From positions 289,618 to 353,617 of the forward strand of contig CAMPDV010000325.1 of the NCBI GenBank assembly GCA_946699065.1: DNA of 64,000 bases, given 5' to 3'. The notes beneath the pieces were generated by a model. It searched no databases. It worked only from the letters and a program-made list of their open reading frames with translations, and was not told the DNA's origin. This document shows positions 8,772 to 63,090 of the stretch, one piece after another. The position numbers were made by a program, and so were the translations under genes. The DNA comes from Loxodes magnus. Taxonomy: Eukaryota; Ciliophora; Karyorelictea; Loxodida; Loxodidae. Within the stretch, counting starts at the first letter, position 1, and every line of letters starts with the position of its first letter.

Positions 8772-9487
8772 ATAAAAAAATGGTTGAAGGTTTCAAGTCA
8801 AGCTTCTATACTACCTCTTCCCATTCCAAAAAGCAAGGGAGGAAGCTAGAAACCAAGTCTTAATAATCTTAACTCTCTTCTCTATCACAACCTTAACCAA
8901 TACTGAACTAACAACTTGGAATCTAACAAAACGAACGAAAGCCAAACTTGAAAAATATACACACGGAAACTCCAACCTCAAGCGAGAAACCGAGGAAACA
9001 GATGAAGTCTGTTCTCCAACAGGAGGTATCAGAGTTCCACCCTTCTGGCCAGATGAGCATGGAGTAGCTCATCAAAGTGGTACTGAACCTCCAGGAAGAG
9101 GTCAAGAGATTGAAGAAGGACAATGATATGCTGATGGCAAAGATAGAACTAGCAGAAGGAATAGAGTCAAGATTTATATCCTAGGAAAGAGATCTTAATG
9201 CCTTTTGAAATATCTCACAAAGTCAGACTAACGAATCCTAAAATTAGCTTTAGAAACAGAATGAACTGGATAACAAACTCGGAAAAGTAGAAGAGAAATA
9301 GTAAACTTTTAAGAAAGAGTAAAGCGAAACTGGAGCTATACAAATGGAAATCGAAGCCTATAAAGAGCAAAAAAATCAAGGAAAATAATTAAAAATAATT
9401 AAAAATAAAAAATAAATGTTTCTGCTGTGGAAGCGTATGACATTTTTATCGGAAGTGTTAGAAATTCTAATAGAAATAAAAAAAATA
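8772..9487 (+). mobile_element. R1: zinc-knuckle retroposon, subfamily B
   Basis: The ORF starts at ATG 8780, right after an A-run, as in the sister copy R8. It reads MVEGFKSSFYTTSS at the N-terminus, then a Gln/Ser-rich linker, the segment PSGQMSMEQLIKVVLNLQEE, and a Lys/Glu-rich coiled coil. A CCHC knuckle lies at 9417-9458 (spacing C-x2-C-x4-H-x4-C), in a different frame from the start, so a frame change lies between. TGA codons occur at 9206 (where R8 has TGG) and at 9438, just before the knuckle His. The usual 3' tail is missing because R2 and R3 abut it. The protein is the kind of nucleic-acid chaperone found as LINE ORF1 or gag; no polymerase is present. Confidence 0.7.
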
Positions 9488-9505
9488 TTGAATAAGATTT
9501 AATAA

Positions 9506-10335
9506 TAATAATAATAGTAAACTAAAAGTAATTAAAGTTTAGCATTCCCTGGATTTTCAACCAGGTTTTTGCTACCATTTTTTTAGCGTGGATGGATACC
9601 ACGCCATTTTTTTATGTGGATGGAACCACAGAGGATCTTCTGTCTTTTATGTGAATAGTTTTCTCTTGTAAATCCCTGTTTAGGTTATTCAGAGTCTGCT
9701 GAGTATGCTTAACGTTCTTTATTGTTCTTTTATCTAAATTTATCTTCACTAATCGCAATTTTGTAATAAGTGTCACTTTGATTTGCAATAATAGCATTGT
9801 TTGCCTTGTTTTTTCTTGAATCTCTTCAGAAATACTTTTTTTTCAAGTTAATCGATTCTTTTGATTAAATCTATATTAATCTTTTAGTCATTCTATTTTT
9901 CTTAAACGTTTGCTTATGTAGAAACATTTTCGATAATCATATTTTGTTCTTGCTTAAAATTCGATTGAGATTATTCATATAGTTACTATTCCGTGACTAG
10001 ATTATTCTAAATCAATTATCGTCTAATTATTAGAAGCTCGTTATTTTAATCTTCGATAGTATTCATTAGTTCTCTTATTTTTTCCCCTTGGTTGTAAATT
10101 GTTTCCTAATAATTTTGTATTATTGTTTTCATTTGGTCAAGCTATATTTATATTTCGGATTATTTTTATACCTTTACTGGATTCGATTCTATTGTTCCGA
10201 TTATGATTTTTCCTTCAGAGGAGGAACTTGATTTATCTTCTTGTTGTTGTTGTCTCTGCATTTGTTTCGCAGCTTTCCTTTTTGCGTTCTTAATTTGGTT
10301 TTTGGAAAGGCGAATAGATTATTCCATTTTTTTTT
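9506..10335 (-). mobile_element. R2: full-length zinc-knuckle retroposon, subfamily A
   Basis: The ORF begins at ATG 10327 (minus strand), a few bases inside the element, and keeps one frame for about 270 codons to the tail. It has a basic start (MEQSIRLSKNQIKNAKRKAA), a Gln/Ser-rich linker, a coiled coil containing NQGEKIRELMNTIEDQNNEL, the knuckle CYYCKSK-TGA-HLLQNC, a motif RL-TGA-ITQTGIYKRK, and a C-terminal repeat of W-[FY]-x-P type. In-frame TGA lies at 9773-9775, 9746-9748, 9689-9691 and 9557-9559. Two GTGG/CCAC hairpins and a (TTA)n tail close the 3' end. The element is flanked by the 18-bp direct repeat TTGAATAAGATTTAATAA (9488-9505 and 10336-10353), a target-site duplication. It looks like the youngest insertion in this cluster. 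Confidence 0.8.
9586..9629 (-). repeat. Tandem 3' hairpins of R2
   Basis: Two hairpins lie next to each other. One has stem GCGTGG/CCACGC with a 7-base loop (9586-9604). The other has stem GTGG/CCAC with a 6-base loop (9616-9629). Each is followed on the element strand by an A-run and ATGG. The same paired arrangement is seen in R3 and R4. It probably marks the 3' end recognised by a reverse transcriptase supplied in trans; this is inference from LINE biology. Confidence 0.6.
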
Positions 10336-10740
10336 TTGAATAAGATTTAATAAAACGAATAAATCAGCTTGAAAAAAAGTATTTTAGAAAAACCTTTGAA
10401 AAGATAAACCAAACAATGTTGGTATTGCAAGTCAAGATGACATTTATTGAAAAATTGTGGTGGCTGAAAATAATTATAATTAAAAGAACAATTAAGAACG
10501 TGAAAGACTCTTAATAGGCTATGAATTACTGAAGCCGGAGTCTATAAAAGAAAAATATTTGCTGGAAACTTGGAAGATTTTTAGTGGTTACCTCCCACTT
10601 AAAAAACTTGGTCGTGGTATCCATCCACGTTAAAAAAATGGCAGCAAGAAACTGGTTGAGATTCCAGGTATTACAAGACGTTTTAACTTTAAGTTCATTA
10701 TTATTATTATTATTAATTATGTTTTATGATCTTTCCTGTC
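10336..10740 (+). mobile_element. R3: 3' part of a subfamily A zinc-knuckle retroposon
   Basis: It begins inside the coiled coil (reads DLIKRINQLEKK in one frame), then carries the knuckle CWYCKSR-TGA-HLLKNC at 10417-10458. After that come the motif NRL-TGA-ITEAGVYKRK and the C-terminal WYPSTLKKWQQ, then two GTGG/CCAC hairpins (10583-10629) and a TTATTATTA tail near 10700. In the knuckle frame TGA occurs at 10438, 10465, 10501, 10522 and 10657. Four of these coincide with TGA in R2. R2 inserted at the left end of this fragment, as shown by the 18-bp duplication. The 5' part is absent, or replaced by R1. Confidence 0.7.
10584..10629 (+). repeat. Tandem 3' hairpins of R3
   Basis: GTGG/CCAC (arms 10584-10587 and 10595-10598) and CGTGG/CCACG (arms 10613-10617 and 10625-10629) each enclose exactly seven bases and are separated by an A-rich spacer. 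R4 has the same geometry with different loop sequences, which suggests that the fold is conserved as well as the coding sequence. Confidence 0.55.
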
Positions 10741-11080
10741 TTTTATTAGTATTTAATTTTAATTAATTTATAATTCTTAGAAGATAGAAAAATTATAAAT
10801 TTCCTAATATTTCAACAGATAAGAAAAAGCCTTCAATTATTCAATTGCTATATATCTTTATTTATAAACTGGAGATTTATCTAAATATTTACTAGTTAGG
10901 CTAAAATTTGCCTATTCCAAAGCCAAGTAAATAAAAGTTAGTTTAATAGGTCACTAAGCATGATTTAAGCATTATAATAAATTAAGCAGAAATAATTAAT
11001 AAATAAACATAATCCCTTTAAGTTTACATAAGTCAAACAATATAGTAAATTAAGATTTTACTCTTTGTTAAAAATATAAA

Positions 11081-11098: not shown

Positions 11099-11899
11099 GA
11101 ATAAAAAAATGGAAATGGAATAGAATATTCGACTATCTAAAAATTAGGCAAGGAACGCAAGAAGAAGAGCTAACAAAGAACTAGAGAAGAAGTAGAAATA
11201 AATGGAATACTTATCAAGCTCCTATTCAGAAGGCAAAGCAATGGTTGGACAAGTTAATGAGAGCACTTCGCTTTCAATTGAAATGGAAAAGATGAAAAAA
11301 TTAATTTCTAAATATGAAGAAGAAACATATAATCAAGGAGAAAGAATTAGAGAGTTTATGAATAATATTAAGGATCAAAATAACGAACTATTAATTCTTA
11401 GGAAATAGCTTATATAAAACAATATTGTGACAGAGCATTAGCTCTATACTCAGTCTTAAAATAATTTCAAAGAAGGGGTAAATATGAGTATTGAAGTCCT
11501 CCCTTCTTAAGCAAAAGATTAAGAAATAAATATAGAATAAAATGTTGATAAAAGTTTAGTTAAAAGAATAGAACAAATAGAAAAATTAGTTTTGCCTTAG
11601 TTGAATAAAAAAAAATAGACAAAAAATTGTTGATGTTGTAGGTCGAAATATCACTTATTAAAAAATTTAAAAAAATAGAAGAAATAAAAACATGAAGGAT
11701 GTTAAACTAACTTTGAATAACCGACTCAGGAATTTATAAATAGAAATTATTTAGTGGTAACATGGAAAATTCATTGTGGTAGCCACCCACATTCAAAAAA
11801 GGCCGTGGTATACATCCACGTTAAAAAAAAGACGGAGCGAAATCGGTTGGAATCCCGAAGAACTCCAAAACTCTTAACATTTAGTTTTCATTATTATTA
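11099..11899 (+). mobile_element. R4: full-length zinc-knuckle retroposon, subfamily A
   Basis: The ORF starts at ATG 11109 after an A-run and reads MEMEQNIRLSKNQARNARRR, then a coiled coil (11202-11405 is open even in the standard code), a Gln/Asn-rich linker and a diverged knuckle at 11628-11669. There the first codons are C-TGA-C-C, where R3 has C-W-Y-C. Farther on comes QL-TGA-ITDSGIYKQK in another frame. Two hairpins with 7-base loops (11776-11790 and 11804-11820) and a TTATTATTAT tail end it. The 18-bp direct repeat ATAACTATATTAAGCTTA flanks it (11081-11098 and 11899-11916). Unit F shows the unoccupied site near 51964-51980. No polymerase is encoded. Confidence 0.8.
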
Positions 11900-11916
11900 T
11901 AACTATATTAAGCTTA

Positions 11917-13200
11917 ATGTAAATTCAGCTATATTTTTAATTATTAATTTTAAATAATTTTTATAATTAAATATCCAATGTTAATATAACATGCTCTAAA
12001 GAGTTAATAAAGGATTAATTATTAAGTTATTTGTAGTTAAGCTCAAAGGATTTAAAAAGTGGTAGAATTAAGATACAGAGTGAAACATGTTTACAATGCT
12101 TTACAACTATGTGCTTTGATAATTATAGTTATCTATTTCAAAATATAATTAAAGTTTAGAATTGTATAATAATAGAAAATACCTAGTTATATAAAATAAT
12201 TAAAGTTTTTGATTAAATGTATTTATTTTGGTTAGAGAAAATATTAAAAACCTTTGCCTTTAGATTAATAAAATTATTAAATCATAAAATGTGAATCTTC
12301 TTTTTTGGCTTCTGATTTAACTTCAATTTCCTGAAAATATTTTTCTTTATAAAACACAATAAAGTACTAGCATTACATAGATTAGATATATAAATTCGCT
12401 TTACTTTATCATAATAATTAAAGATTTTAATAGTAATATGTGAGAACTTATCTCCTTATATTTTTCTAAAAAAAGCATAAAATGTAAAATAAAGTTTATA
12501 TATTTTCTTTATTTTCAACAACTCCATTAAAATTTTATCTTCTTTATCTTTTAAATGAAACTATAATTATGATATTTAGGAATAATTCCTGCAAACAATG
12601 TAAGCAAAATAAAAATAAAATTGAAAATATCATGAACTATGGCTGAAAATAAAATAGTGATTTGATCATATTAATGTTTATATTTTTAAATGATTATCTT
12701 TGAAGGTAAAAAAGATTATCTTAAAATACATAATCAACTATAAGTTCTTTATATAACTATTAATAATCTAATGGAAAATTTCATTTTATAACTTTTTTTT
12801 AGTTTTGGATTTTTTAAAATAAGGAGATTTATAAATTATTAAAATTAAGATTTTCACCATTTTAAATTTATAAAATTAAATGATAATTGCCAAAGAAAAA
12901 AGTCTTTGGATTATGAAATTTAATTTTCAATTTTGAAAATAAAGGCATATTGCTCAACATATTTAATAGAAAATAAAGAAGCTAAATTAACTTTATTTAA
13001 TCCATATGAAATTAGACAGAGAATATTAAAATATAACTGCAACTCTAAAGTTAATAATTTTTATTGTTTCATTACAAAGCATAATTACGATAAAAAATCT
13101 TTAGAGCATATTGATAAATTTAATTAAAAGAATATAAATAATGATAAAGAGTTTGTTTAATTAATAATGTTAAATTGTTTAAAGTAACTTAGTGAGTTTC
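11917..13200. other. Unit A downstream segment
   Basis: This is the part of unit A that follows the membrane-protein gene in gene orientation. It matches 51.98-52.9 kb of unit F. On the plus strand it holds the 5' part of a long TGA-free frame (from about 12.88 kb to 13862) whose segment FNPYEIRxRILKY also occurs in unit F. No other gene or RNA was recognised. Confidence 0.45.
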
Positions 13201-13201: not shown

Positions 13202-13612
13202 TCATTATAATATTACCAAGTAAAAGTAGAAAAGTGATAAAATTACTACGAAATAAATCAAATGCATAGCCTACTCTGATTATTTACTATCATTTTAGTC
13301 GAAGTTATCTCATTCAGTTTTGTCTTCATTTTCATTTAAATTCAATGACGAATTAGTAAAATTTCTATCGCCGGAAATTAAATTTTAACTACATTCAGAC
13401 TTTTATGTGTTTTCTTCACTTATTGTTCCCAAACTAGAAAATGAATTTTAATAAACAGATAGTTAGTTTTTTTATTTCTACTAATATAATATTTTATCAT
13501 AATTAGATGCTTGTTTTACGTTGATGTTTTGTAAAATATTCAAGTTTGTATAGCTTGAACTATTCTTTTTATTTGTAGTAGATTCTGTATTCTTTATAGT
13601 AGAACTTATAAT
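13202..13612 (-). pseudogene. Tail-anchored membrane protein family, copy A
   Basis: This copy is the same length as the intact copy B (137 codons). It carries the family landmarks STTNKKNSSSYTNLNILQ, FSSLGTISEE, and a C-terminal hydrophobic segment ending YFYLVIL before Q and TGA. The initiator position reads ATT, not ATG, and the frame is interrupted once before the membrane segment, so this copy is probably inactive. The opposite strand is open over the whole interval. Function is unknown. Confidence 0.55.
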
Positions 13613-16334
13613 TTCCTTTTATTCATTTTTATTTTATTTTAGAGTCTTTGCTTCATCTAGGATTAATTCCCCTAGCGATTTTTATCTCTCAATGGAATTT
13701 AATTTTCGTAAGTGTAATTATTTGTTCAAATCAGATCTTTCATTTTAATGGTAAACATTTTAAGTTTCAGTAAGTAAACTATTCTTATCTTACTAATTCC
13801 TCTCATGCTAATGCGTAAAATGTTCTTCTTCATTTATAGAGGACAACTATCCTTATTCTTGATTAAGCTTGAAAAGTTTATTATTAGCGATTTCTTTTCC
13901 ATCACTTTATTAATTCATTTATAGGGATTCTGATTTTTTTTGGCTTAAGTTATTTGTTCACATTTTTATTATAAACAGAACGATCTAATGAATTTATAGC
14001 TATCAATTAAATAATTAATTGATATAATTTATAAATGTTTAATCCTTATATATTGCTCTAAATTTAGTATTAATAGCTTTACCTCTATATTTCTCAAACA
14101 TTAAGAGCAACTTAGAAATAAAAAATAAAAGCTTATCTCCAACTTTTCTCTATTTACTTAAAGCTTTAAATTGCTTAAGTATTAATTTACTAAGTACTGA
14201 TATAATAATGCCTAGATTAAGATAGAGGTATAAAGAGTCTTTATGATTATACATTTTCTATGCTTATTATTTAATTAGAATTGTAAAGAAATAAAGTTAT
14301 GCATAATAAATTAAAAAGCATCATTTAATAAATTTAATTTTTAGCTTATATAGCTTAGACTGCTTAAGTACGTTTAATATTTATTGCTTAATTTCATAAA
14401 CTTTAAGGGAATTCTAGATAAAATATAGTAACAGTAGAGCTTTTAAATTTAAATTAAGATACAATTATAAAATAAAAGATCTAATTAATAGTAATGAAAC
14501 AAGTTAGAAACAAAGCCATCATTGTATTTAGTTGGAAGGGTACTAATAAGTAAATAATATTAAGCAAAAGTTAATGCAAGCTAAGTAATAAGTTTGCTGC
14601 TTAAATACATTTTTCAAAAATGTAAATAAATAGAAAAAAACATAGTCACTACTGTCGGATTTGAAAAGAGCTTTTACGTAAATTATATTTGATATTATCA
14701 TATAAAAATAATGAATAGATTGAGATTAAAGCTTAGTGATAATTACATCTCAGATACTCTAATTAAAGATAAACAAAATTTTAAAATAAACATTAATGAG
14801 AGAATTCTGCTTCAAATTTTTTTTAAATATTTCAAATGAAGAAAAATCAAACTGAAATGTATTAAGTATTAAAATATTGACTTATGATTGAATTGTACAT
14901 CATTATAACCTTATCTCATAAAAATACTCAAATACTCCTTTTAAAACTTAATTTAAAATATGCTTCAGAAATATAAAATATTTTAATTAAAAGCTTATAT
15001 TAAGGATTCTTGGTTAAATAATACTCTTAAATCTTAAAAATAAATGTTTACATTTTTGTAATTTGGATTAGAACTCATAGTTAGTTTAATGAATAGGAAT
15101 AAGGTATTCCTTATGTATCTTAGAGACATATAATTTACAACTTTCAATATCTTAATATGCTTTATAATTATTTAGAATTTAATTATCTTTAGTATAAATA
15201 ACTCATACGTCTAATACTTTATACTGTTTAAGCTTAAAAGTTTATCAATTAAAAATGATTTAATTTATCTCATAGACTGATAGAAACCATTGAGGGATAA
15301 AACTTTCGGAGAGTTCCACCAGTTTAAGCAAGAAAACATTAAGTTATAGTTAATTTTTAGAAATTAATGAGCCAATAATGATAAAATCAATTGACTGTTT
15401 GATTAATAGGCTATTAAGTCTTAAGTTTTCTTTCAAAATATAAATATTAATATATACAATTAAGCAACCATATAGCTTACTTTTATTTATTTAAATAAAT
15501 CCTTATTAATTGAGGCTAAAATATAACTAAGCTATATAATCTCAGGTATATATTTATAAAAGGTTAAATAAATCCTATATACTAAAAACAAACAAAAGCT
15601 CTATTAAATGTATAATGATTTTAAACTACTAAAGTTAAATAATATCTAAATGCTATTTAGACTTCCTAATTATTTACTAAAGATATAACTTTCACTTAGT
15701 AAAATAAAGAGCTAGGATTAAATTAGTTAAGAATAAATGAGTATTAGATTAATTTTATATTATAATTATTCTAATAGATAGATCTATCTTATTTTATACA
15801 ATAATTGCATATTTCTGCTTAAATACATTTCATTAATTCCTTTATTATTAAGAAGCATCATTTTGATTTGACTAATTTACTTATTTTTAAAATAAACAAA
15901 TATGAATCAAACACCATTCAAAGCTCTTATTTTAATTAAAATATACAAAGTGTATAACCTTGACTGCAGTTTATTAATAAAGATAATACTAATTATGCAT
16001 AATAATAGTTTCAAACGTCTATAGCTATTTAACTCATGTTTCATATATTTAGTATGCTTACCTTTTATATTACAGATATAAAAAGTTATAGTATGCTAAT
16101 TTTAAGCAAAGTTTTAATTAGCATTAGCTATATTTAGAATAAATATATTTATATCTAATTCTTCATAATTAAACATTAATAGAGTTCTAAATTAATTTTC
16201 ACAATGAAATAATAGCATCTTTGCAATTTAGTTAACTGGAAGTACTAGATCTTTAAATTCTTGGATATTAGATAGTATTTGAATATTAAACTTTAGAAAG
16301 TGTATTAATAGAAGATAATTAATTAATTTTAACT

Positions 16335-17268
16335 ATAAGGGTTAGGGTCATCTTTAATTAGAGGAAATGTTTCCTCAAATTAAAGACAATAAAAGTTTTT
16401 ATATTCAAAACTCAACTGTACATTTCTTCGTCTGAATCAATTTCAAACTGAGATAATTCTTCTTTCTCTTCAATAAGCTCATAAAATTGTTCTTCCATCT
16501 TCTTGTAATTTTTCTCCAGCTTCTCTAAACAAATTCTAAGGTCATTGTTGTCCTTCTAAAGCTATTTATTCTGTTACTATTAATTACCAAGATCCTGTTT
16601 GATTAGAGTCACACTTGAATCATCTAATATCAGCTTCTTTCTGTAAATAACTCCAAAGTAGTTACAATATAGCCTCCTCGATGTTCCAAATTATTTACGG
16701 TGCTGCTCAAGCACTCTTCTTCACTTCGGACATTACCTCCAAAAATGTCCAGCCTTTTGACAACAATACCAACGTTTTATTAAGGGCTTGAATTAAAATT
16801 TTTATTCTGTTTACATTTTTTCAATTTCCATCTTTTCTGATTGAAGTTAGTTTTTTTTGATTGGTAATTGAATTTCTTCTTTAATTTTCTATTGATTTGC
16901 TTCTAGATTTTTTTCTATAATTCAAATTAGGAAATTAAGGCTTAGTTAAAACTAAACTTTACTTACCAAGTCTTGATCTTCCTTTTTTCTATCTTATAAA
17001 AGAAGCCGAAGATTCAAGTTTTCCGCCTTCAGGATCTATATTTCGGTATTCATTTTCTCAATTAATGAATAAAGCTAAATAATGTCTTGTTCGTGGGGTT
17101 TCTCAAGCTTTTTCAGTTTGCTAGGAAATTCCGTATTTCCCAATCCTTAACAAGAGTAGATTTATCTTTTTTGAATTCTTGGTTCTTGTTAGTTAACTGA
17201 GACTTAAGATTGATCTTTAAGGTTAGAATTCAAGGTTTAGATTTCCGGGTTTTTTTTCCATTTTTTTA
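16335..17268 (-). mobile_element. R5: zinc-knuckle retroposon, subfamily C
   Basis: It starts at ATG 17261 after an A-run. The N-terminal half is Lys/Asn-rich and no longer in one frame. The knuckle region (about 16740-16785) reads WYCCQKAGHFWRQC, with Gly, not TGA, before the His, and with the first Cys lost or shifted. A TGA three codons after the last Cys (16721-16723) matches TGA in R2 and R3. The frame then continues for about 100 codons: RLYCNYFGVIYRKK (the second conserved motif), a coiled coil and an acidic end (DSDEEMYS), with TGA stop at 16412-16414. The extended C-terminal part is not seen in subfamily A. A near-perfect 17-bp palindrome follows in the 3' region. Unit F lacks the insertion (around 56.22 kb). 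Confidence 0.7.
16351..16386. repeat. 17-bp-arm palindrome at the 3' end of R5
   Basis: TCTTTAATTAGAGGAAA and TTTCCTCAAATTAAAGA face each other across a 2-base loop, with a single A/A mismatch. It lies between the R5 stop codon and the insertion edge and is absent from the uninterrupted homologue in unit F. It therefore belongs to the element and probably forms the 3' RNA hairpin, in place of the GTGG/CCAC pair of subfamily A. Confidence 0.65.
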
Positions 17269-18322
17269 TTAATAAAAATTAATAATATAAAGCTAATGCT
17301 TATAATTAATGAAAATTGCCTTTTATTATATTTGAAGAGTATAAAAGAGTGAATTGATAGAATTGGAGAGGTAATGGATCATTTTAAGTATAAAATATAT
17401 CTAATAAATAAATATTTTAAATAAAGCAACTATCATTTTAACTTTATGAATAGAATATTCTTTTATACTAAGCTTATTTTTATGAATATTTGCCTACTTT
17501 TATCAAAATTAATAGAATGATGCTTATATTTTTGTTAGGCTTATAAAGTCTTTAGGCTACTATTAATTTATTTGGACAAACATTTACTCTTCTTGATTTT
17601 TTTATCTAAAATTCTATGAGTATTTTGTATTTCCATTACACCAAATATATCACTTTATTGTATAATTTTTTGTATACTTTATTGTTATAAAGTGCTTTGG
17701 AAGATTATTATAGTTATGATATTAAAAAGTAGAATTTACCTCTACCTCTTATGATTACTATTAAAAGAGATTTAGTTACTAATGATTATACCTTAATTTA
17801 AATTATAAACATTTATTCTTAAATACTAAAAGCTAGCTTACCTGTTTAAATTAAATAAGCTTTAAGATTAAGGTTATCAAACTATTATGTCTAAATTTAA
17901 TTTAAATAGCTTTTTCTCTTTGAATGCTAAATATTATCCATTGCTTTAGTAACTCTATCTAAAGTATAAAAAATTCCTAATATCAAATCATTAAGATTCT
18001 TAATACTCTCTCTAATCTAGCTATAATTAATAGGTCTTTAGTAAATTAACTATCAAACCATTCAAAAACATTAATAGATAAAATAATCTAAGTAGAAATA
18101 AGCCATTTTACTCTTACTTTTTAATGGCTCCATACTTATAAATTATAAAGGTAAAAGTATTGACCCTGCTTTTTAAACTACATGCATTGATAAAAAGTTT
18201 ATAAAAAATGTCAATTTAATTATTAAATTGATAGGTATAAATTCAGGAAATCATTTTGTTTATAATAAAGATGTAGAATAATAATTATATCCAAAAAATA
18301 AGTTCAGGATCCGTATCAAGGA

Positions 18323-18514
18323 ATGAATAGAGTTCAGGAAAAGAGATCGCTAATTAGTAAGCTTCCAAGCTTAATTAAAGGCAAGGATTGTGTTCCTCTA
18401 TTAGTTAAGAAGAAAAAATCTTCAACAATTAGCTTGAGAAGAAATAGCAAGGGAAGAGTTATTAACTTACTAAAACTTAGAAGTTTGACTCTTTAAGAGA
18501 ACGATCTGATTTGA
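18323..18514 (+). CDS. ORF-a, conserved basic frame upstream of the membrane-protein gene (copy B)
   Basis: 63 codons under the ciliate code, from ATG to TGA. It is Lys/Arg-rich, with the landmark STISLRRNSKGRVINLLKL. The landmark is found in the same place in C (SSISMRGNNKRRVI), D (LKGNSKKRVISLLKF), F and G, which argues for real coding. It could be a separate small basic protein or a first exon of the downstream membrane protein, whose frame opens just after it. I cannot tell from one sequence. The role is unknown; a basic N-terminus next to a tail anchor might bind nucleic acid or membrane surfaces. Confidence 0.45.
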
Positions 18515-18630
18515 ACAAATATTTACACATATGAAAGAAAAGTTCTACTGAGAGATAAAAAGCATAGGGAAATTTGATTCTAGGTGGGACAAAAAATCAC
18601 AAATATAGTAAGAATTAATAAAAGGAAACT

Positions 18631-19041
18631 ATGCTTTCTATTATGAGGAACTTAGTATAAGCTAAATAATAAAGGAATTATTTTAGTCATTCAAATTAGA
18701 ATATTTTTAAAGACGCTAGCTTAAATAAAGCATATAATAGTGATTAAATATTCTATTAGTAGAACTAAGAAAGTTAATAATTGCCTTATTAAAGCTCGTT
18801 TTCTAGTCTGGGTACTATAAGCGAAGAAAGCACATAAAGATCTTAATCTAGCTAATATTTAATTTCTAGCGATAGAAATTTTACTAATTCATCACTGAAT
18901 TTACATGAAAATGATGACAAAACTGAATAAGATGATATCCCTGACGAAAAAGCTAGGAAATAATCAGAGTAGGCAGTACTTTTGATTTTTTGCCTAGTAA
19001 TTTTAATGCTTTCCTACTTGTACTTGCTAATCGTATAGTGA
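18631..19041 (+). CDS. Tail-anchored membrane protein family, intact copy B
   Basis: 136 residues with TAA/TAG as Gln, ending at TGA 19039-19041. The body is polar (Ser, Asn, Gln), with the family signature FSSLGTISEESTQRSQSSQ near residues 57-75 and an acidic stretch (HENDDKTEQDD) near 92-102. The final 22 residues are hydrophobic (VLLIFCLVILMLSYLYLLIV). This predicts a C-terminal anchor with the bulk in the cytosol. The stop position is conserved in all seven copies. No known family is recognised. The frame is also open farther upstream, so the start may lie before this ATG, as in copy D. Preservation of length and signature in a multicopy sequence suggests past or present selection. Confidence 0.55.
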
Positions 19042-22735: not shown

Positions 22736-24751
22736 TAAATCCAAACTTCTTTAATTTTACTTAGAGAAAGTTCTTCTCTTTAGTAAATAGATATGAAGTT
22801 TTAATAGCATTTAGATATATATTTAACTTTAGTTTTTTAAAATAATCACACATTTAATAGGGTTATTAATTTTTAGAATAGAAGAATAATTTAACTTTTT
22901 ATTAATATAGCATGAAGGTATATAGCGAAGCCACATTTTAGCCTCAATTATAAAGGATCTACTTAAATAAATAAAAATAAGTTATATTATAGCACTTTAA
23001 TTAGAATACTTGCAGGAATTAATTTCTTTATATTTAGTGTAGTTCTTAAGTCCTAATTTAAATAAATTAACAAGTTAAGATAAGTGTTAGTATCAGTGAA
23101 AATTTTCAATTTAAAATCTATCATATTTTTCTAATTAGATTTTGCTTTAGAGCAAATAGGATATATTACTAGTATTTTTCAATTAAAATTGAAAGAGAAT
23201 TGGTGTATTTTTCTATTTATTTTATCTTTTTGTGCTCAGTATTTTATAAAAGCTTTACTATATCTTAATCTTTTCTTTCTTAAACAGTTAAACTCTTCTT
23301 AAGTTCTATTCTTAGCTGGTTTCTAACCCTCTGCTAGATAATTAAAATCATCTTTCATAAATTTTTGTTTTTTCAGCTTTAAAGCTTACATGTGTAAACT
23401 TAAATTTACAATTTCTAGCATTTTAAATAGAAAAAGCAAAGAGGTTAGGTATATCTTAATTTAACTTAAATAGTACAGGTATTAATTCAGTTAAAGTTAA
23501 CTTGTATAATATAGTAAGAGTAAAGGAATGGTATTAAGACATAAGATACAAGCTAAATATATATAAATATATAGAGGCTACACAATAATAGAACTAATAA
23601 GTTCTTAGATTTAAAGCATTATATATATTAATTATTTCTACTAAATATCATTCAATTAAAAAATGATAAAACATATTAAGGTATTAAAGTTATAAATTAT
23701 ATATCCTTAAAGAATATAAAGAACACCTTATTTATATTAATTTATAAATTACTAAGAGTGCTTAATCTAAATTAAATAATTAAATTTATTTATTAGACAT
23801 GAGAGCATATTTTACCCAGTATACTTAATCATATGCTTTAATAAAAATATTTCATATTTATGAAGCTTATTTAAAGTAAGTTTATAAAAGAATAAACTAT
23901 TATTTTTATGAATAAGGCTCTAATTATGTAAAATTAATTATAAAGTTGGGATTTTAGCATTTAAAGCATCCTAGTTTATTTTTTATAATTTTTCTTCATT
24001 TAAAATATCTATGAAGAAAAAAATATTAAAGCAAGGTTTTACTCTCATTAGGATTTAATTTAAAATTTTGTTTAATTTTAATTAGATTATTTGAGATGTA
24101 TTATCACTAAGCTTTAATCTCAATCTATTTATTATGTATACTTGATAATAATAAAGAATAATTTAACTAAGAACTCTTTATAAATTCTGGCTCTATTATT
24201 CTTGTTTTATAGTTATTTACCTTAAAAAATGTATTTAATAAGCAAACTTATTATTTAGCTTTCATAAATTTCTGCTTCATATTTTTCATTTTATAGTTAT
24301 CTTTTAAACTAAAAAACTTTGATGCTATTAGCTCTCCTCTTTGCATTTTTATTAAATGAGATTTTATTTATTTTACAATTATATCTTAATTTAAAATAAA
24401 AAATGGAACTCTTACTATATTTTTCTAGAATTATCTTAATGTTTATGAAATAAGCAATCAATAGTAAAAACTACTTAGCCAGTTTAAGCTATATAAGCTA
24501 AAGTTAAATTTACTTAATGATGCTTTTTAATTTATTATTCATAAAGTTATTTCTTTCCTTGTACGTTTATTTTTATTTATTGCTTGATTAAAAGTCTATC
24601 AATCATTTAAATTAAATTGCTAGTTTATTGGTATAAATTCATGCTATTCTTCCTGCTTATAATATAATGAGGAAAAATAGCTTAAATCAAAAAATTGGTT
24701 CGGAGTCTATATAAAAGGGTTACTATAGTTCAGGAAATTAAATCGCTAATA

Positions 24752-25027
24752 ATGAGCTTTCCAAGTTTAATTAAGAATAAAGATAATGATCCTATATAAA
24801 GGAAGAAGAGCACTTCAAGTATTAGCATGAGAGGAAATAACAAGAGAAGAGTTATTGGCATAATGATACTTAAAATTTTTATCATTAAGGTGAAGGATCT
24901 GATTTTAGCAAATAATAACAGATGTAAAAAATAAGCTCATCTGAGAGATAAAAAGCAAAAGAGGAATTAACTCCAGATAATGTAAAGAAGCTTAAATATA
25001 TTAAGCATTAATAAAAGGAAATTATGA
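24752..25027 (+). CDS. ORF-a, longest copy (unit C)
   Basis: 91 codons from ATG to TGA: MSFPSLIKNKDNDPIQRKKS, then SSISMRGNNKRRVI, a hydrophobic patch (GIMILKIFII) and a basic end (LRDKKQKRNQLQ...INKRKL). Its TGA overlaps the ATG of the next frame (ATGA at 25024-25027). The same ATGA overlap is present in F and G. In copies B, D and F a TGA replaces a Leu codon in the middle, so ORF-a is shorter there. The function is not known. Confidence 0.45.
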
Positions 25028-42416: not shown

Positions 42417-42429
42417 TTACTCTTTGGAA

Positions 42430-51639: not shown

Positions 51640-54600
51640 AGTAACTAATTTTAATTCTAAGTTCTATGAAGCTATAAATTTATAATTTTCCTAACAGGTC
51701 AAAAAATAAGAAAAAACTTTAAATTATTTAATTGTTATAAATCTCTATTTATAAACTGGAGCTTTATCTTATATATTTTCTCCAGCTAGTTAGAAATTTA
51801 CCTTAACTAAGTTAATAAAAGTTAGCATAATAGGCAACTAAATATGACCTAAGCATTAAAATAAATTAAACAGTAGTAATTAATAAATAAACATCATCCC
51901 TTTAAATTCAGATGAGTCAAACAATCTAATAAATATTTATCTAATCCTTTGAAAAATATAAAGTAGCTATACTTAAGCTTTTATAATTCAGCTATCTTTT
52001 CAATTATTAAATTAAATAAATCAAAATTATATTATATGCATAAAGCAAGTTCTAAAGAGTTAATCAAGAAATAATTATTAAGATATTTATTAAATAAGCT
52101 CATTGGATTTAAAAAACGTTAAATTAAGATGCAGAGTCAAATGCCTTTACTATGTTCTACTATTATGTTTTTCGATAATTATAATTTTATATTTCAAAAA
52201 TATAATTAAAATTTATAATTACATAGTAAATCAGAAATACCTAGTTGTACAAAAATAGTTAAAATTTATTATTTAATATATCTATTTTGACTAGAGAAAT
52301 ATTATACCTTGCCTTTAGAATAATTAAATTATTAAGTCATAAAATGTTAATCTTCTTTAATTTTAACTTCAGTTTCCCGAAAACTTTTATCTTAATAAAA
52401 ATAAGTACTAGCATTACATAGAATAGATATAAGACTTCGCTTTAATTTAGCTTAATAGTTAAAGAATTTAATTATAAAATTATGAAAACTTATCTCCTTA
52501 TATTTTCTTAAAAAAGCGTCAAATTTAAATTAATTTATATACTTTCTTCGTGTTCAGCAACACCAAAAAATATTCATCTTCTTTACTTTTTATATGAAAC
52601 TCTATTTCTGATATTTAAGAATAACACTTTCAAACAAGGTAAGCAAAATGAAGATATATTATTCAGCATACTTATTAGGAAAGACAGAAGCTAGAATTTA
52701 CTTTTTTAATCCATATGAAATTAGACTGAGAATATTAAAATATCTACTAATATTTAAAAGCTAATAGCTTTTAATTTTTATTACAAAGCATAATTACGAC
52801 AAAATAAATAAAATCTTTAAAACATATGGATAAACTGCAATTTATAGAAAAGAGAAAATGATAAAGAGTTCATCTAATTAATAATATAAAAAATGTTCAA
52901 AGTAGCTTAGTTAGTTGTTTCATTGTACGATTACAAAGTATAAATAGGAAAGTGCTAAAATTACTAGAAAAGAAATCAAGAGCATAGGCTATTCGGATTA
53001 TTTACTATCTTTTTCGTCAGAGTTATCTTATTCAGTTTTTTCTTCATTTTCATTAAAATTCAGTGATGAATTTGTAAAATTTCTATCGCTGAATATTAAA
53101 CATTAGCTTGATTAAGATTTTTATGTGTTTTCATCACTTATTGTACCCAGACTAGAAAATGATTTTTCAGAAATCATTGATGTATTTTCTTATTTCCACT
53201 AGCAGAATATTTTATCATTTCTAGAAGTTTTGCTTACTTCGATGTCTTGTAAGTTACTTAAATTTGTATAGCTAAAACTATTCCTTTAATTTGTAGTAGA
53301 TGCTACGGTTCATATATTAGAATTCATAATTTCCTTTTATTAATTCTTACTTTATTTAAAAGTCTTTGCACTATCTAGGCCAGATTCCTCTTATGCTTTT
53401 TATCTCTTAGTAAAACTAAATTTTTGTTAGTGTAATAATTTATTCAAATCAGAACTTTCTTTTTAATGGTTAAAACTTAAAGTTTCAGTAAGTTAATAAC
53501 CCTTCTCTTGCTATTTCTTCTCATGCTAATACTCGAAGTTTTCTTCTTCATTTATAGAGGAACATTATCCTTATTTTTAAAAAATCTTGGAAAGCTTATT
53601 ATTAACGATCTCATTTCCTGAACTCTAGTAATTCTTTCATATCGAATTTGAATTAATTTTTTGGCTTAAGTTATCTTTCCACATTTTTATTATAAAAGCC
53701 AGAATTAATGAATTTATACCTTTTAATTTATAATTTAATTGATATTACTAATAAACTTTTACTAAAGCAATAAATAATAAAGGAAAGAAATAATTAGGCA
53801 TAATAAATAAAAAAGCATCATTTAATCAATTTAATTCTAGTTACTAAGCTTAAACTGGATAAATAGTATCTGCTATTGATTGCTTTTTTCATAAACATTA
53901 AGGAAATTATAGATAAAACAGTAAGAGCTTCGGTTTTTTATTTTAAATTAAGATAAAATTATAAATAAATAAAATCTCATTTAATAGTAAGGAAAGAGGT
54001 AGAGGTAATAGCACCATTGCATTTAATTGAAAAGACTACTAATAAAATAAAAATATTAGCAAAAGTTAAAGCAAGCTATATTATAAGCTTGTTGCTTAAA
54101 TAAAATTCTAAAATTTAAATAAATACTAAAACATAATCAGAACTGCCAGATTTTATAAAGAGTTCTTATGTAAACTATATTTGATTATTATATAATAAAT
54201 ATAATAAATAGATTGAGATTAAAGTTTAGTGATAATTATATCTAAGATACTCTAAATAAAATTTATAAACATTTTAAATAAACATTAATGGAAGGAAAAC
54301 TCTGCGCTAAAGTCAAAATAATATTTTTCTTCATAGATGTTTCAAACGAAGAAAAATCATCAAAAAATCAAACTAAGATGTTTTAAGTATTAGAATCCCT
54401 ACTCAATATCTAATTTTACATCATTAGAACTTTATTTCATAAAGTACTCAATTATTCTTTTAAAATCTACTCTAAATTAGCTTCATAAACATAAAATATT
54501 TTATTAATAGCTTGTATTTAGGAAACTGGGACAAATATGCTCTCATATCTAAAACTAAATTCTTAATATTTTAATTTAGATTAAGTACTCTTAATTAATT

Positions 54601-57699: not shown

Positions 57700-60600
57700 A
57701 AGATAGATGCTTTATTTTAAAAATGTATTGATTAATGAAATATAATAATGAAATGTAGCTTTTCTATTGGTATAAGTATATTGTTTTATAGTCTACAAAT
57801 AGAGTTTTATTTAATCTAAAAGGTAAATTTAAGGATTAGCTTCTATTTATTATTAATAGTTTAAATTTTGAATGGTTTTTATGCCGCTACTAACTTTGCT
57901 TTCATTAAAGTTTTAAAGTTGATTGTATTATTAATGAATTAAATTCGTTAATATGCTATTCTTTCAGTGTAAAAGTAATCTCTATTCCATTTTTGATTCT
58001 GAAGAATAATTAGATGTTTATGTTCTTTAAATATAGAGTTATGAAGATATAAGAATATAAATATTGCTATTATAAATTGCTTTGTTTTATCACTATCTTA
58101 TCTATTCTCAATCTTAAAGGTATATCTAATAATATTTTTCTAATCTTAGAATGTAAAGCTTAAGCTAGAAATCATAGATACATTTATCATGTATAATGAT
58201 TATTATCTTTTATCTATAAACTGTAATTAAACTTATATGCTTTATCTCTTATCCTTCTAGCTTGCTTTCTTAATTAAAATAACAGAACTTTGAAGGATAT
58301 TTAGCAAGTTAGTTAATCTAAAGCATGACTCTTAGTAACTAAGGATAATCTGTGACTTTTTAGTTAAAGAAGTGATTTAATTTTACAAAATATACTAATA
58401 AAAAGGATATTTAAGTTAGGTTAATTTATTAAAGCTTCTTATAATTTATAAATATTTATTCTTAAAACTCATTCCTATTTATACTAAACCCTATTTATAG
58501 ATATTTTTGTATAAGCTTTTAAGTGTCTATCTAAGAAGCTAAAATTGCAAGTTAATTATATTTATATTTAGCAGATTAAAATAATGAGCATACCACTGGT
58601 ATATTTGCTTGCTAAGTTTAGGATTTATTTATATTTTATTAAAATATACCTGAAGATATAAAGTTTAGACATATTATAACTTTAGAAGAGCCATGCAAAG
58701 TATATATAAAGGAATCACTCAAATAAAAGAAAATAAGCTATATTAAAGCTTTAATTTATATAATTGCATGGAATATCCTTTTTTATATTAATTAATGCGA
58801 TTTGGACAAGTCAATCAACTATCTATTTAAAAAATTAATAAGTTAAGATAAGTATAAGCTGCTATTTTTAAACCAAAGCTGATTTTATTCTGAATAGTTT
58901 TTACTTTTAATATTAGGAATAATTGCTACTTATGGAAGAGAAACAAAAGAATATTTGTTTATATTGACTAAGTGGCTTATGTAAAGGGACAAGCTGTAAT
59001 TATTTGAATAAAGCCTGAAGTTAACTAATTATTAATTAGGAAGGCAATAAAATTTATAATTATTTGTTCATTATTCTATGAGCAACTTATTTGATATAAA
59101 TGAATCTGCTTAATCAGGGGAACTCTAGTTCTAAATTTCTTTTATTTTTATAAAAGTATATTAAGCACTAGAATCATTAGTTACTTTGCTTTAAAGTTAA
59201 AATGATGGTAACTTGACTTTTAGAAATAAAAAAAACTATGATATATAGAGTAAACTAACAATAAATACATAAGTACTTAATTTAAATTTTAAGATGCATT
59301 AGTTATTTCTACTTTTATCTTTAAATGAATAATTAGAATTTCTCAGTTCTTTATAGTTGTATCTAATCTGTCTTTAAAGATAATTAAGCAATGCCTTATT
59401 TCAATTTATTTAAGAGAGCATTGTATCTATATTAAATAATTAAAGGCTTTATTATTAAGATGTAAGAGCTATTTTTATCATTGTTTTCTTAAATATGCTT
59501 TAGTGATAATATTAAATAAGTGAGTCTTATACTAAGTTTAATAGAAATATTGAGTATTTTTATGAAACTTCAATCTCAAGTAAAATTCTATTATATAAAA
59601 AATACCACTCGCACATTATAGATGATTGCTTTTCATTTGGAATACTTAGAAAAATATTTAAGACTTTGAAGCAAATCTTTCTTCTCATTGCTGTTTATAC
59701 CATTATTTTGTTTAATTTAATTTTTGATAAGAGTATTTGAGATGAAATGATAACTAACTATTGCTTTGAATCTAATAATTATATTTACTAATCTTAGTTA
59801 ATAATCAAATATAATTATAATTTACCTTTGTAAAATCTGACTGTTGGCTACTTGGCTTTTAATAAAATAATGTAAACTTAAATATGCAAGCATTAATAGT
59901 TATAGTAGTAGACTTATTATATACTAGCTATAAACTTGCAAAAGTAGATATTTAATAGAATTCATTAGTACTATTATCTCTATCTCTATTCCCTAATGCT
60001 AAAAGAGACTTTCCTTACATTTAATTGTATTTAATTTAAATGAGTATTCTTTAAATTATCTCACTTTAATTTATGTCTTACCAATCAAAAGTATAACTAC
60101 CTAACAAATTAAAAGATAAGTTTATCAAAAGATGCTTTTTATTTATAAGTCCTTACTTTAATTACTTCTTTGAGTGCAAAACACTGTTTATTTCTTAACT
60201 AAGTATAATTAAGTATACAAGTTATAAATGCCAAATAAAAAGACTATAAATCTAAATAGAGTTCTATTTTATAAATGCTTAACAAATTAACTCTCAAACC
60301 ACTCAAAGTTTAGGTAGAACATTTATTCCAAGTGAGATAAACCATTTTATTATAGCTTTTTATTTAATATTTATGCAATAGAGATTTAAGATGCTAACCT
60401 TCAATTTAAACTCATACAATTATAAAAGTTTATAAACCAATCAATTAAACTATTTAAATGACTCCTATAAATTCAAGAGTTCATTTCTGTTTATAATAAA
60501 AATGCAAAAAAGTAGACAAAGCCATAAAGTAAGTTCAACTTCTTTATGCTGAACTTACTAGGGCCTTGGAAGAGCAAGCGCTAATAGGATGCTTTCCAAA

Positions 60601-62500
60601 TTCAATTCAGAATGATGCAATTCATCTATATGTTAAGAAGAAAAACATTTGAATCATTAATCTGAAAGGAAATAACAAGAGAAGGGTTATTAACTTACTG
60701 AAACTTAGAAGCTTAATCATTTAAATGAAAGATCCTATTTTAATAAATAAAATCACACATGTAAAAAAAATTCCCCTTAGAAATAAAAAGAATTAGGTTA
60801 ATTTATTTTAGGAAGAGCAAAGAATCTTACATAAAGTAAGAATTAATAAAAGGAAGATATGAGCGCAATTGTGTAGAACTTAGCATCTACTACACTTAAA
60901 AAGAGTAGTTTTAGCTATACAAATTTGAATACCTTGCAAGACGTTCGTGCAAGCAAAGCATCTAATAATGATTGGATATTCTATTAGTAGAAACAATAAA
61001 ATCCATCATTACTTTATTAGTACTCCTTTTCAAGTCTAGGTACAATAAGTGAAGAAAGCACGTAAAGATCTTAATCAAGTTAATAATTATCTCCTAGCGA
61101 AAGAAATTTCACTACCTTATCACTTCATTTATATGAAAATGAAGATAAAATTGAGTAAGAGAGTTCTTAGAAAAAAATTTAGGAAGAATCAAAATAAGTG
61201 AAGCTATTAATCTCCTTCTTAATATTTTTGGCGCTTTTGTACTTATACTTGATAATCGTAGTATGAAACAACTCACTACGCAAACTTTAAATAATTTTTT
61301 AGTTTAATAATAAAATAAAATTTTAGCGTAATATCTTCTATTTATATTTCAAATTATCCATATGATCTTAAGACTTTGTTTTAAGCTGTATTTATGTTTC
61401 ATAATAAAACATTATAAAGTAATTAACTTTAATTTGTTAAATTATAAATTCATACTTTTTATCTAATTCTATATAGATTATTAAAAACAAGTAAGAACAG
61501 AAGGTAAAAAGATAAAATAGATAAAGTGTTAGAGTGTTAAAACTTGTTATAGAGCTCTCATACTCATCTTCTATGACTAAATTAAGTCTTTTATATCAAT
61601 TTAATAAATGTTAAATTTAAGAAAAATGACTAAAAAGCTAAAGTGATAAAAATACTCCAATTTATTAGATTCTCCTTTTTATAACTCTTGAAACTAAAAA
61701 TATTTAAATAAAGAAAGCCCTTTCATTAGATTATTAATAGGGGTATAAATTATCTAATATGATTTATCTATTAATAAGAGACTTTTTAAATTAGTTTCCT
61801 TTACTTTGAAGATACTTATTTAAGTCTATAAACACAAAGGAAAAGTTCACTCTTACACTTTAAAATTTTCTTTAACTGTCATGCAACTTTACGTTCCATA
61901 TGAAGGTATGATTCCTAAGAAACAGAAATGGAGTTCCATTGAAAGAAAAAGAAGATAATTAATTGACTTTTTTAAATAGTAAATTAATTTTAAATTTGAA
62001 GCATCTTTAAGAAAACTTGAAAGAGATAAGCTTTACATGATTTAAAGCTTTAATTATTTATTAGTAAGCTAAATTTTATATCTATTCTATGTATGCTATG
62101 ATTTTAAAGCCTTTTAATAGAAATAAAAGTTTAGTATGCTTAAGTTAAAATAATGAGGAAGATTAAAATTGATAATTAATAGTTATTATTTTAAAGGAAA
62201 GCTATTTTAAAAGTAATCTAGCCCAATAGAAACTAATAATAAAAAGCCTTAGCTTATTTAATTAAAAATAGATTTATATCATACATTTAATTCCAACTTT
62301 TATAATTTTATTGCTAACTAGAAAGATATAATATTAAAGGTATATGACTATACATAATTGTATGTTCTATTTATCTTCGTATATTCATTTAAATATTCAG
62401 GATATTAATTATAAAAGCCAATCTAATTTATAATTATAAGCTAAGATGCTGCTATGCTAAGCTTTAGTTCTAAATGTTCTTAATTTATATTTTTTACCTA
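57700..62500 (+). repeat. Large repeat unit G
   Basis: A direct copy. The upstream arm at 58.5-60.4 kb matches C and E. It carries ORF-a landmarks (LKGNNKRRVINLLKL) and the membrane-protein copy at 60859-61266. The downstream part at 61.75-62.45 kb matches 29.5-30.4 kb in unit H. Retroposon R13 follows immediately. The left boundary is approximate. Confidence 0.55.
60859..61266 (+). pseudogene. Tail-anchored membrane protein family, copy G
   Basis: Starts MSAIVQNLASTTLKKSSFSY and keeps NTLQDVRASKASNNDW, FSSLGTISEESTQRSQSSQ and LYENEDKIEQESS. The membrane segment (LISFLIFLALLYLYLIIV) is present but lies in another frame, so one frame change separates it from the body. In this copy ORF-a has slipped into frame with the gene. 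Confidence 0.5.
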
Positions 62501-62504
62501 GTAA

Positions 62505-63090
62505 ATTTCTCCCAGAAGGAAGAGATGTTTACAATAAGTCAGGATCTGATAAACCATTAAGATGATGACGAAGTCCATATGGTAGACCGAAGAGCTAAAG
62601 TCGGAGTCTATGAATCAATTTAAAATTTAGAGAATGATTATTGAGTAATGCAAGAGTAAGACGAGAAAAACTGAGTAAAATTAGATTCCAGACTTACATT
62701 AATAGAAGAAAACCTGTAGAAGCCTTCTTAAGGAATTCCAATGGAAATAGAGAAACAAGAAAAGATATTTCCTAGAGCAAGGAAAAGATGTTAGATTTGC
62801 AACAGCACTTGACATCTATGGCGAAAATGTCTCCAATAGAAAAGAATAAGAATGAATATTTGGAGTAATATTAACTATTAGCAACTGAAATGGCGAGCGA
62901 CGGAATTCTTCCCATTGGGAAATGGGAAAATCTGGAAAAAAAACAAATTCTTAACTCAAACTATTAAAAAGAGAGAAGTCCAGGAAAAAGAGCACAAGGA
63001 ACTCACATGCAGGAAAGGAGATTTTATACATTTAAAACTTCAATTAAGTCGGAAGGCGAACAGCTATTTTAATGATTAATGATTAAATTA
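62505..63090 (+). mobile_element. R13: subfamily D zinc-knuckle retroposon with one continuous frame
   Basis: From ATG 62525 a single frame runs 185 codons to a TGA (63080-63082) that lies within the 3' tail repeat. It starts MFTISQDLINHQDDDEVHMV (acidic), then KVGVYESIQNLENDY, a Leu/Glu stretch, the knuckle CQICNST-TGA-HLWRKC (62786-62827), a Trp-rich stretch with four TGG (NIWSN, LKWRA, KIWKK and HLWRK) and the basic end TCRKGDFIHLKLQLSRKAN. Three internal TGA (62642, 62672, 62810) and no frame change are seen. The tail is TTAATGATTAATGATTAA. R7 shares the C-terminus and tail. It looks recent; the codon question is treated as a finding. Confidence 0.75.

What the first reader, a model, noticed from the sequence alone, without database searches (positions are those of the whole stretch)
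8772..63090. In-frame TGA at conserved tryptophan positions in zinc-knuckle retroposons: possible UGA=Trp reading
Under TAA/TAG=Gln these ORFs stay open except for TGA, and the TGA recur at matching places. (1) Just before the knuckle His in R1 (9438), R2 (9773-9775), R3 (10438) and R13 (62810). (2) Three codons after the last knuckle Cys in R2, R3 and R5. (3) In the motif RL-x-(I/C)-(T/N) in R2, R3 and R4, where R5 and R9 have Tyr. (4) Inside the knuckle, R4 has C-TGA-C-C where R3 has C-TGG-TAT-C. (5) R1 (9206) and R9 (38783) have TGA where R8 has TGG (SAFWN). (6) R8 has HL-TGA-RRC where R13 has HLWRKC with TGG. R13 and R8 are otherwise single unbroken frames of 185 and about 315 codons. Meanwhile TGA is the conserved stop of the membrane-protein family, of R5 and of R13 itself. 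UGA may thus be read as Trp inside these elements, by a suppressor tRNA, a stage-specific context or an origin in a host with another code. The plain alternative is TGG-to-TGA decay inherited from common source copies.
Basis: partly seen in the sequence, partly recalled or inferred. Interest (0 to 1): 0.88.

Follow-up and report, generated by a model that had tools for sequence, protein, structure and literature searches.

The report
UGA codons read through inside genes
In this stretch of ciliate DNA two unrelated gene families carry the codon UGA inside frames that natural selection keeps open and also end in UGA, which fits a genetic code already described in some ciliates where UGA means tryptophan inside a gene and stop at its end.

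Summary
Site 1 (before the knuckle His) is not a tryptophan position: five copies have Gly, Lys, Lys, Arg or Tyr there.

Plain decay does not explain the pattern. (a) In R2/R3/R4 the part downstream of the shared TGAs is under purifying selection in one frame (z 3.3-4.6; highest of 594 noncoding control tests 2.58).

So UGA is read as sense inside these frames, most likely as Trp, and as stop at their ends. This is not special to the retroposons. The karyorelict ciliate code (NCBI table 27) does this, so the ordinary reading is a host with that code. The host could not be identified; in a UGA=stop ciliate such as Tetrahymena the result would be new. Some private TGAs and the five frameshifted copies are decay.

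The parts
8774..9500 (+). R1, family A zinc-knuckle retroposon copy; TGA at 9206, 9438, 9489; a frameshift near 9371
   Evidence: homology with R8 starts 6 bases before ATG 8780
9497..10327 (-). R2, family B copy, taken as one frame; TGA at 9775, 9748, 9691, 9559; 3' hairpins and (TTA)n tail
10344..10756 (+). R3, family B copy, 5' part missing; TGA at 10438, 10465, 10501, 10522, 10657; a frameshift near 10401
11115..11925 (+). R4, family B copy; TGA at 11631, 11693, 11714; three frameshifts after the knuckle
16415..17182 (-). R5, family C copy, taken as one frame; TGA at 16924 and 16723; first knuckle Cys is TGG
27297..28618 (-). R8, family A copy; 321 codons read in one frame with TGA at 27955 and 27787; 3' end shared with R13; ATTAATC tail repeat
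38395..39110 (+). R9, family A copy; TGA at 38784 and 39051; four frameshifts by alignment
41711..42446 (-).
62543..63092 (+). R13, 5'-truncated copy, taken as one frame; TGA at 62642, 62672, 62810
60502..61266 (+). membrane-protein copy M1; internal TGA 60550, 60613; terminal TGA 61264
13202..13963 (-). membrane-protein copy M2; internal TGA 13960, 13312; terminal TGA 13204
52920..53684 (-). membrane-protein copy M3; internal TGA 53639, 53312; terminal TGA 52922
18271..19041 (+). membrane-protein copy M4; internal TGA 18532; terminal TGA 19039
24667..25428 (+). membrane-protein copy M5; internal TGA 24787, 25147, 25153; terminal TGA 25426
32036..32788 (+). membrane-protein copy M6; internal TGA 32141; terminal TGA 32786
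47644..48129 (+). membrane-protein copy M7, shorter (161 codons); no internal TGA; terminal TGA 48127
2849..2919 (+). tRNA with UUA anticodon, expected for UAA=Gln
   Evidence: ARAGORN; Rfam tRNA 46 bits

Best explanation
The window comes from a ciliate nuclear genome in which UAA and UAG are Gln and UGA is ambiguous: translated (most likely as Trp) when inside a coding sequence and terminating when at its end. This is the karyorelict-type code (NCBI table 27). The zinc-knuckle copies are LINE-like retroposons (coiled coil plus CCHC knuckle, structured 3' end, short-repeat tail, some 5'-truncated) that follow this host code, as does an unrelated membrane-protein family in the same window. Supported by tests here: UGA is tolerated, and selection continues past it, inside frames that are kept open, and UGA stands at the end of the same frames. 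Inferred: the residue is Trp; the choice between sense and stop depends on closeness to the mRNA end, as published for karyorelicts; the host is a karyorelict or has the same code.
For: Membrane family: 7 copies, each read in one frame from ATG to a terminal TGA, with 11 private internal TGAs in 6 copies. In pairwise DNA alignment of the six full-length ORFs, 14 of 15 pairs show no frameshifting indel and one (M1/M6) shows 2, which cancel; 300-bp flanks show 3-10 per side and pair. Over 52 repeat-pair alignments the window shows 1382 frameshifting indels in 10584 substitutions, and the frameshift-free stretch with most substitutions (13174-13968, 194) is this ORF from ATG to terminal TGA. On 763 parsimony substitutions, 13.9 TGA gains are expected if TGA is accepted like an average change (26.3 on the ML count; 11 seen) and 44-99 frameshifts (0 seen); if TGA were as harmful as a frameshift, P that 11 of 11 such events are TGA is 1.4e-7 to 1e-10. 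Retroposons: downstream of TGAs shared by R2 and R3, substitutions keep the protein in the knuckle frame (BLOSUM sum 233 v 153 expected, p 2e-4; other frames p 0.55 and 0.24), also in the last segment after three shared TGAs (p 5e-4 and 2.5e-4; other frames 0.49-0.69); z 4.63, 4.1, 3.32 for R2/R3, R3/R4, R2/R4 against a maximum of 2.58 in 594 noncoding frame tests. Columns where copies share TGA score best as Trp (13.5 bits, Tyr 8.2, Gln -0.5). In R columns holding TGG, other copies hold TGA 9 times (5 columns) and TAG once. All 7 membrane ORFs end in TGA. tRNA with UUA anticodon. Precedent: Loxodes UGA=Trp/stop (PMC11441545, sections 9 and 11 read); Parduczia and Condylostoma (PMC4967479, passages).
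Against: The host is not identified and no conserved domain gives an outside check (no Pfam hit at E 0.01 in six frames of about 34 of 64 kb). Over all 15 TGA columns Tyr scores above Trp (13.2 v 11.8), and the same score fails to recover Trp for TGG. Trp alone is not enriched at R TGA columns over a decay model (0.073 v 0.070, p 0.45; C-terminal part 0.084 v 0.125, p 0.73); aromatic enrichment is p 0.0018 over all columns but 0.014 in the C-terminal part; the membrane family gives p 0.068 (aromatic) and 0.021 (Trp). By eye 7 of 11 membrane-family TGA columns are Gln/Lys/Gly/Arg-like, as mutation alone would give, and 6 of the 11 TGAs lie in the first 41 columns. In membrane-family TGG columns TAG (6) and TAA (7) outnumber TGA (2). 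Five of nine retroposon copies have frameshifts. In the short segment between columns 250 and 284 a wrong frame scores about as well as the right one (right frame p 0.024 and 0.09 in the two directions of the test, one wrong frame 0.13 and 0.024), and the third-position excess is weak for pairs with R4 (p 0.28 and 0.07). One of 594 control tests reached p 0.005 and 8 reached p 0.05. A codon-usage test downstream of TGAs did not separate frames. Frameshift expectations rest on indel rates of mostly noncoding sequence: the lower one (0.058 per substitution) used only flank alignments above 60% identity, the higher counts overlapping repeat pairs; coding sequence may suffer fewer indels.
Confidence: 0.7

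Rival explanations
1. Plain decay. UGA is the only stop; the copies are dead insertions and TGG, GGA, AGA or TAA codons mutated to TGA, some already in common source copies that were mobilised in trans.
For: Decay is visible: frameshifts in five of nine retroposon copies and knuckle residues lost in R4, R5, R8, R9, R41. The decay model predicts 20% of new TGAs from TGG and 23% from TAA. In the eight private R columns Trp is not among the six best residues, and all 11 membrane-family TGAs are private.
Against: Frame-specific purifying selection persists downstream of TGAs shared by R2 and R3. The membrane family has 11 TGAs but no net frameshift in 7 copies, with 44-99 frameshifts expected.
Confidence: 0.16
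2. Recoding limited to mobile elements in a host whose ordinary genes use UGA only as stop (for example Tetrahymena germline elements), by a stage-specific suppressor tRNA or strong readthrough.
For: Both families that show sense UGA are multi-copy and may both belong to mobile DNA. The overall composition (about 22% GC) also suits Tetrahymena DNA (recalled).
Against: No ordinary gene in the window could be tested. Two unrelated families share the behaviour. A known host-wide code explains everything without a special mechanism. The Tetrahymena breakage-motif core and telomere-like strings that I searched for (four strings, recalled) are absent, though a 64-kb window need not hold one.
Confidence: 0.11
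3. UGA is read as sense but as another residue (Cys as in Euplotes, Sec, or mixed near-cognate readthrough).
For: The amino acid is not fixed by the data: Tyr scores as high as Trp over all 15 R columns, and Cys appears in five of 11 membrane-family columns with TGA.
Against: Columns with shared TGA favour Trp. A Sec reading needs a SECIS element, which I did not look for. The ciliates with an ambiguous UGA in the papers seen read it as Trp (PMC4967479 passages, PMC11441545 section 9).
Confidence: 0.03

Closest known systems
Karyorelict nuclear code, NCBI table 27 (Loxodes magnus, Parduczia sp.)
   Same: UGA the only terminator and also sense (Trp) inside coding sequence; LINE-type elements abundant in Loxodes (PMC11441545 sections 9, 11; PMC4967479 passages). 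UAA/UAG=Gln in this table is recalled
   Different: Host not identified; depletion of UGA just before the stop could not be tested with 7 ends; Trp not shown
Condylostoma code (NCBI table 28, number recalled)
   Same: UGA both Trp and stop by context (PMC4967479 passages)
   Different: There UAA and UAG also terminate; here all 7 membrane ORFs end in TGA
Non-LTR (LINE) retrotransposons and their ORF1-only derivatives (HAL1-like, recalled)
   Same: Coiled coil plus CCHC knuckle ORF, 5'-truncated copies, 3' hairpins with covarying pairs, short-repeat 3' tails
   Different: No reverse transcriptase or endonuclease domain found in the parts scanned
Tetrahymena REP elements (Fillingham et al. 2004; paper not held; seen only as a reference)
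   Same: Ciliate germline-restricted non-LTR family (title)
   Different: Known for endonuclease and reverse transcriptase (recalled); no sequence comparison was possible

Membership tests
Karyorelict-type code (table 27) | UAA and UAG are Gln (recalled as part of the table) | tested here: met
   Membrane-family columns interchange TAA with CAA (column 37) and TAG with CAG (column 163); tRNA with UUA anticodon. TAA and TAG score best as Gln, but so do AAA and GAA, so that score adds little
Karyorelict-type code (table 27) | UGA translated inside coding sequence | tested here: met
   11 internal TGAs with no net frameshift in the membrane family; selection downstream of shared TGAs in R2/R3/R4. 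Comparative evidence only, no transcripts or peptides
Karyorelict-type code (table 27) | Sense UGA is Trp | tested here: inconclusive
   Trp best on 7 shared columns, Tyr best on all 15; the score does not recover Trp for TGG
Karyorelict-type code (table 27) | UGA is the only stop | tested here: met
   7 of 7 membrane ORFs end in TGA at the point where frame conservation ends; one gene family only
Karyorelict-type code (table 27) | UGA depleted in the last ~20 codons | tested here: inconclusive
   The internal TGA nearest an end is 36 codons before it in 7 copies, but few are expected by chance
Karyorelict-type code (table 27) | Host is a karyorelict | not testable with these tools
   No whole genome held for the window; no eukaryote collection on hand
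Non-LTR retroposon | 5' truncation, conserved 3' end, tail | tested here: met
   R3 and R13 lack 5' parts; 3' hairpins and (TTA)n or ATTAATC tails; target-site duplications not shown
Non-LTR retroposon | Reverse transcriptase and endonuclease (autonomous element) | tested here: not met
   No Pfam hit at E 0.01 in six frames of seven 4.9-kb stretches that cover eight of the nine copies, R8's last four bases aside; R13 was tested only as one frame
CCHC zinc knuckle | C-x2-C-x4-H-x4-C | tested here: met
   Intact spacing in R1, R2, R3, R13 if TGA is read as one residue; Cys or His lost in R4, R5, R8, R9, R41. Pfam gave only a sub-threshold zf-CCHC_2 match in R5 (10 bits, cut-off 27)

The most novel reading that the evidence does not exclude
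Germline mobile elements of a ciliate whose ordinary genes use UGA only as stop decode UGA as tryptophan, so that a second genetic code is in force for mobile DNA in one cell.
Probability: 0.11. Interest if true: 0.88.

Novelty: new member of a known kind. Interest (0 to 1): 0.42.

Why it matters
If the host has the karyorelict code, this is a worked case of mobile elements and a fast-evolving gene family living under an ambiguous code, and it warns that TGA-based pseudogene calls fail in such genomes. It also shows a sequence-only test, comparing the fate of TGA with the fate of frameshifts in multi-copy families, that can point to a sense stop codon without transcripts. If the host turned out to use UGA only as stop, a code specific to mobile elements would be new as far as I recall (no search was made for precedents).

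Tried and rejected
Rejected: (1) TGA three codons after the knuckle as the true end of the ORF (idea): the part beyond it is selected in the same frame in R2/R3/R4. (2) The pre-His TGA as a Trp site: the column is mixed. (3) TGA-to-frameshift ratio in the retroposons alone as proof: the copies are heterogeneous. (4) Codon-usage test downstream of TGAs: it did not separate frames. (5) Trp-only enrichment over the decay model in R: nil. (6) A possible further copy near 50709 (-) with a TGA like R13's: not supported by tblastn, dropped.

Led nowhere: viral-contig scans with R8, M4 and R2 proteins (no relatives); Pfam on four retroposon proteins and ten long ORFs: only matches below the curated cut-offs; six-frame Pfam scans with TGA=W over 7 stretches of 4.9 kb: nothing at E 0.01; reverse-transcriptase motif by pattern: two chance-like hits; whole-genome search not possible. 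Paper searches on Tetrahymena zinc-knuckle, germline or UGA-bearing retroposons listed nothing that I recognised as this case; two more looked for karyorelict codes. Only four papers were opened (PMC5182062, PMC2612030, PMC4967479: passages; PMC11441545: passages and sections 9 and 11).

Dropped rows: column 169 (one copy only) was left out of the 15-column tests; M7 was left out of the ORF indel pairs; flank alignments at or below 60% identity were left out of the flank indel rate; R1's TGA 9489 lies beyond the stretch used in the alignment, so 27 of 28 retroposon TGAs were counted. Repeat alignments under 250 columns were left out.
Full report
What was checked. No whole genome is held for this window, so the test rests on copies inside the 64 kb. 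The window is about 22% GC, rich in diverged repeats, and holds a tRNA with anticodon UUA at 2849-2919, as expected where UAA is Gln. By similarity they fall into about four protein families (A: R1, R8, R9; B: R2, R3, R4, R41; R5; R13) that share a coiled coil, the knuckle and a short motif after it.

Anatomy. Family B copies end in two short hairpins, three of whose nine predicted pairs show a change on both sides among four copies, followed by (TTA)n. R8 ends in an ATTAATC array and shares its 3' end with R13. R3 and R13 lack 5' parts. This is the anatomy of LINE-type retroposons carrying an ORF1-like protein; no reverse transcriptase was found in the parts scanned.

The TGA sites. By aligned columns, TGA meets TGG in columns 149, 235, 244, 271 and 340, and mostly Phe/Tyr in 250 and 284. 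Before the knuckle His the column reads TGA x4, TAT, GGA, AGA, AAA x2, so it is not a Trp site. Over 15 columns held by three or more copies (some may be true ends), the mean aromatic fraction is 0.345 against 0.139 expected from one-step decay (p 0.0018); within the C-terminal part alone 0.395 v 0.208 (p 0.014); for Trp alone there is no excess (0.073 v 0.070, p 0.45). A BLOSUM-based reading of the seven columns in which two or more copies share TGA gives Trp first (13.5 bits, Tyr 8.2, Gln -0.5); in the eight private columns Trp is not among the best six; over all 15, Tyr leads Trp 13.2 to 11.8, and the same score does not recover Trp for TGG. In R columns holding TGG, other copies hold TGA 9 times in 5 columns and TAG once; in the membrane family TGG columns hold TGA 2, TAG 6 and TAA 7 times.

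Selection past the TGAs. R2 and R3 share TGA at columns 241, 250, 284 and 340, so their ancestor most simply had them. Between the first and last of these, substitutions since then preserve the protein in the knuckle frame (BLOSUM sum 233, permuted mean 153, p 2e-4), not in the other two frames (p 0.55, 0.24); R2/R4 (p 4e-4) and R3/R4 (p 2e-4) agree when read in the phase of R2 or R3; with R4, which has lost bases there, as the reference the signal moves to its third phase (p 0.011 and 2e-4). The segment after three shared TGAs alone gives p 5e-4 and 2.5e-4, other frames 0.49-0.69; the short segment 250-284 is not decisive (right frame p 0.02 and 0.09, one wrong frame 0.13 and 0.02). In 99 noncoding windows (594 frame tests, both strands) the same test reaches p 0.005 once and never exceeds z 2.58, against 4.63, 4.1 and 3.32 for R2/R3, R3/R4 and R2/R4. 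The R2/R3 stretch 9624-9825 is also frameshift-free over 64 substitutions. Translation past UGA is the straightforward explanation.

The membrane family. Seven copies of a 250-256-residue protein with a C-terminal membrane segment (M7 161 residues) read in one frame from ATG to a terminal TGA. Six carry 11 internal TGAs, each private. Of 15 full-length pairs at 68-80% identity, 14 show no frameshifting indel in the ORF; M1/M6 shows two that cancel; 300-bp flanks show 3-10 per side and pair. Over 52 repeat alignments the window has 0.13 frameshifting indels per substitution, and the frameshift-free stretch with most substitutions is this ORF almost exactly from start to terminal TGA. With 763 parsimony substitutions, 13.9 TGA gains are expected if TGA is accepted like an average change (26.3 on the ML count; 11 seen), and 44 (flank rate) to 99 (window rate) frameshifts (0 seen); were TGA as harmful as a frameshift, 11 of 11 being TGA has P 1.4e-7 to 1e-10, or 7.8e-4 to 2.8e-5 if only the five TGAs beyond column 41 are used. 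TGA and TGG are similarly frequent: 11 and 7 in this family, 27 and 24 in the retroposons. Two of the 11 face TGG in another copy (columns 1 and 163).

Interpretation. UGA is tolerated inside frames that reject frameshifts and ends the same frames. That is the karyorelict code as described for Loxodes: UGA the only stop and also Trp when far from the poly-A tail (PMC11441545, sections 9 and 11 read), and for Parduczia, with Condylostoma similar (PMC4967479, passages). Tetrahymena uses UGA as its only stop, with rare Sec (PMC2612030, passages), and retrotransposons are described as infrequent in its germline genome, non-LTR elements being 4.75% of the repeated DNA (PMC5182062, passages). The retroposons therefore most likely just follow a host-wide code. 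The host is not identified, and this is the main gap: the same data in a UGA=stop host would be new.

What remains ordinary decay: five of nine retroposon copies have frameshifts, knuckle residues are lost in several, and private TGAs at non-aromatic columns fit mutation.

Noticed in passing
13202-13963, 18271-19041, 24667-25428, 32036-32788, 47644-48129, 52920-53684, 60502-61266: Seven-copy family of ~250-residue Gln/Ser-rich proteins with a C-terminal membrane segment; frame conserved while flanks are riddled with indels. No Pfam hit in the frames holding M7 and M4.
   Followed up: yes
22729-27306 and 51048-55611 (inverted): A 4.6-kb segment present twice in inverted orientation at 77% identity, each holding one membrane-family copy.
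   Followed up: partly
36080-36139: Tandem array of the 11-base unit AAATTGAAGAG, 5.5 copies, 98% matches.
   Followed up: no
9540-9620 (-), 10598-10680 (+), 11790-11868 (+), 41715-41790 (-): Two short 3'-end hairpins in family B copies with covarying pairs; the TGA of column 340 (R2, R3) lies in the second loop.
   Followed up: partly
20165-20082 (-): A scrap of the family A N-terminus (MVEGFKKEF), directly after an A-rich stretch as in R1, R2, R4 and R8.
   Followed up: no
50709 (-) region: Coiled-coil-like frame with QEQDEKN as in R13 and a TGA at a similar place; not found by tblastn at E 0.05.
   Followed up: partly
36842 (+) / 37149 (-): Frame with a repeated GTQ(I/L)P-like segment and a high coding-usage score; no Pfam hit in that stretch.
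   Followed up: no
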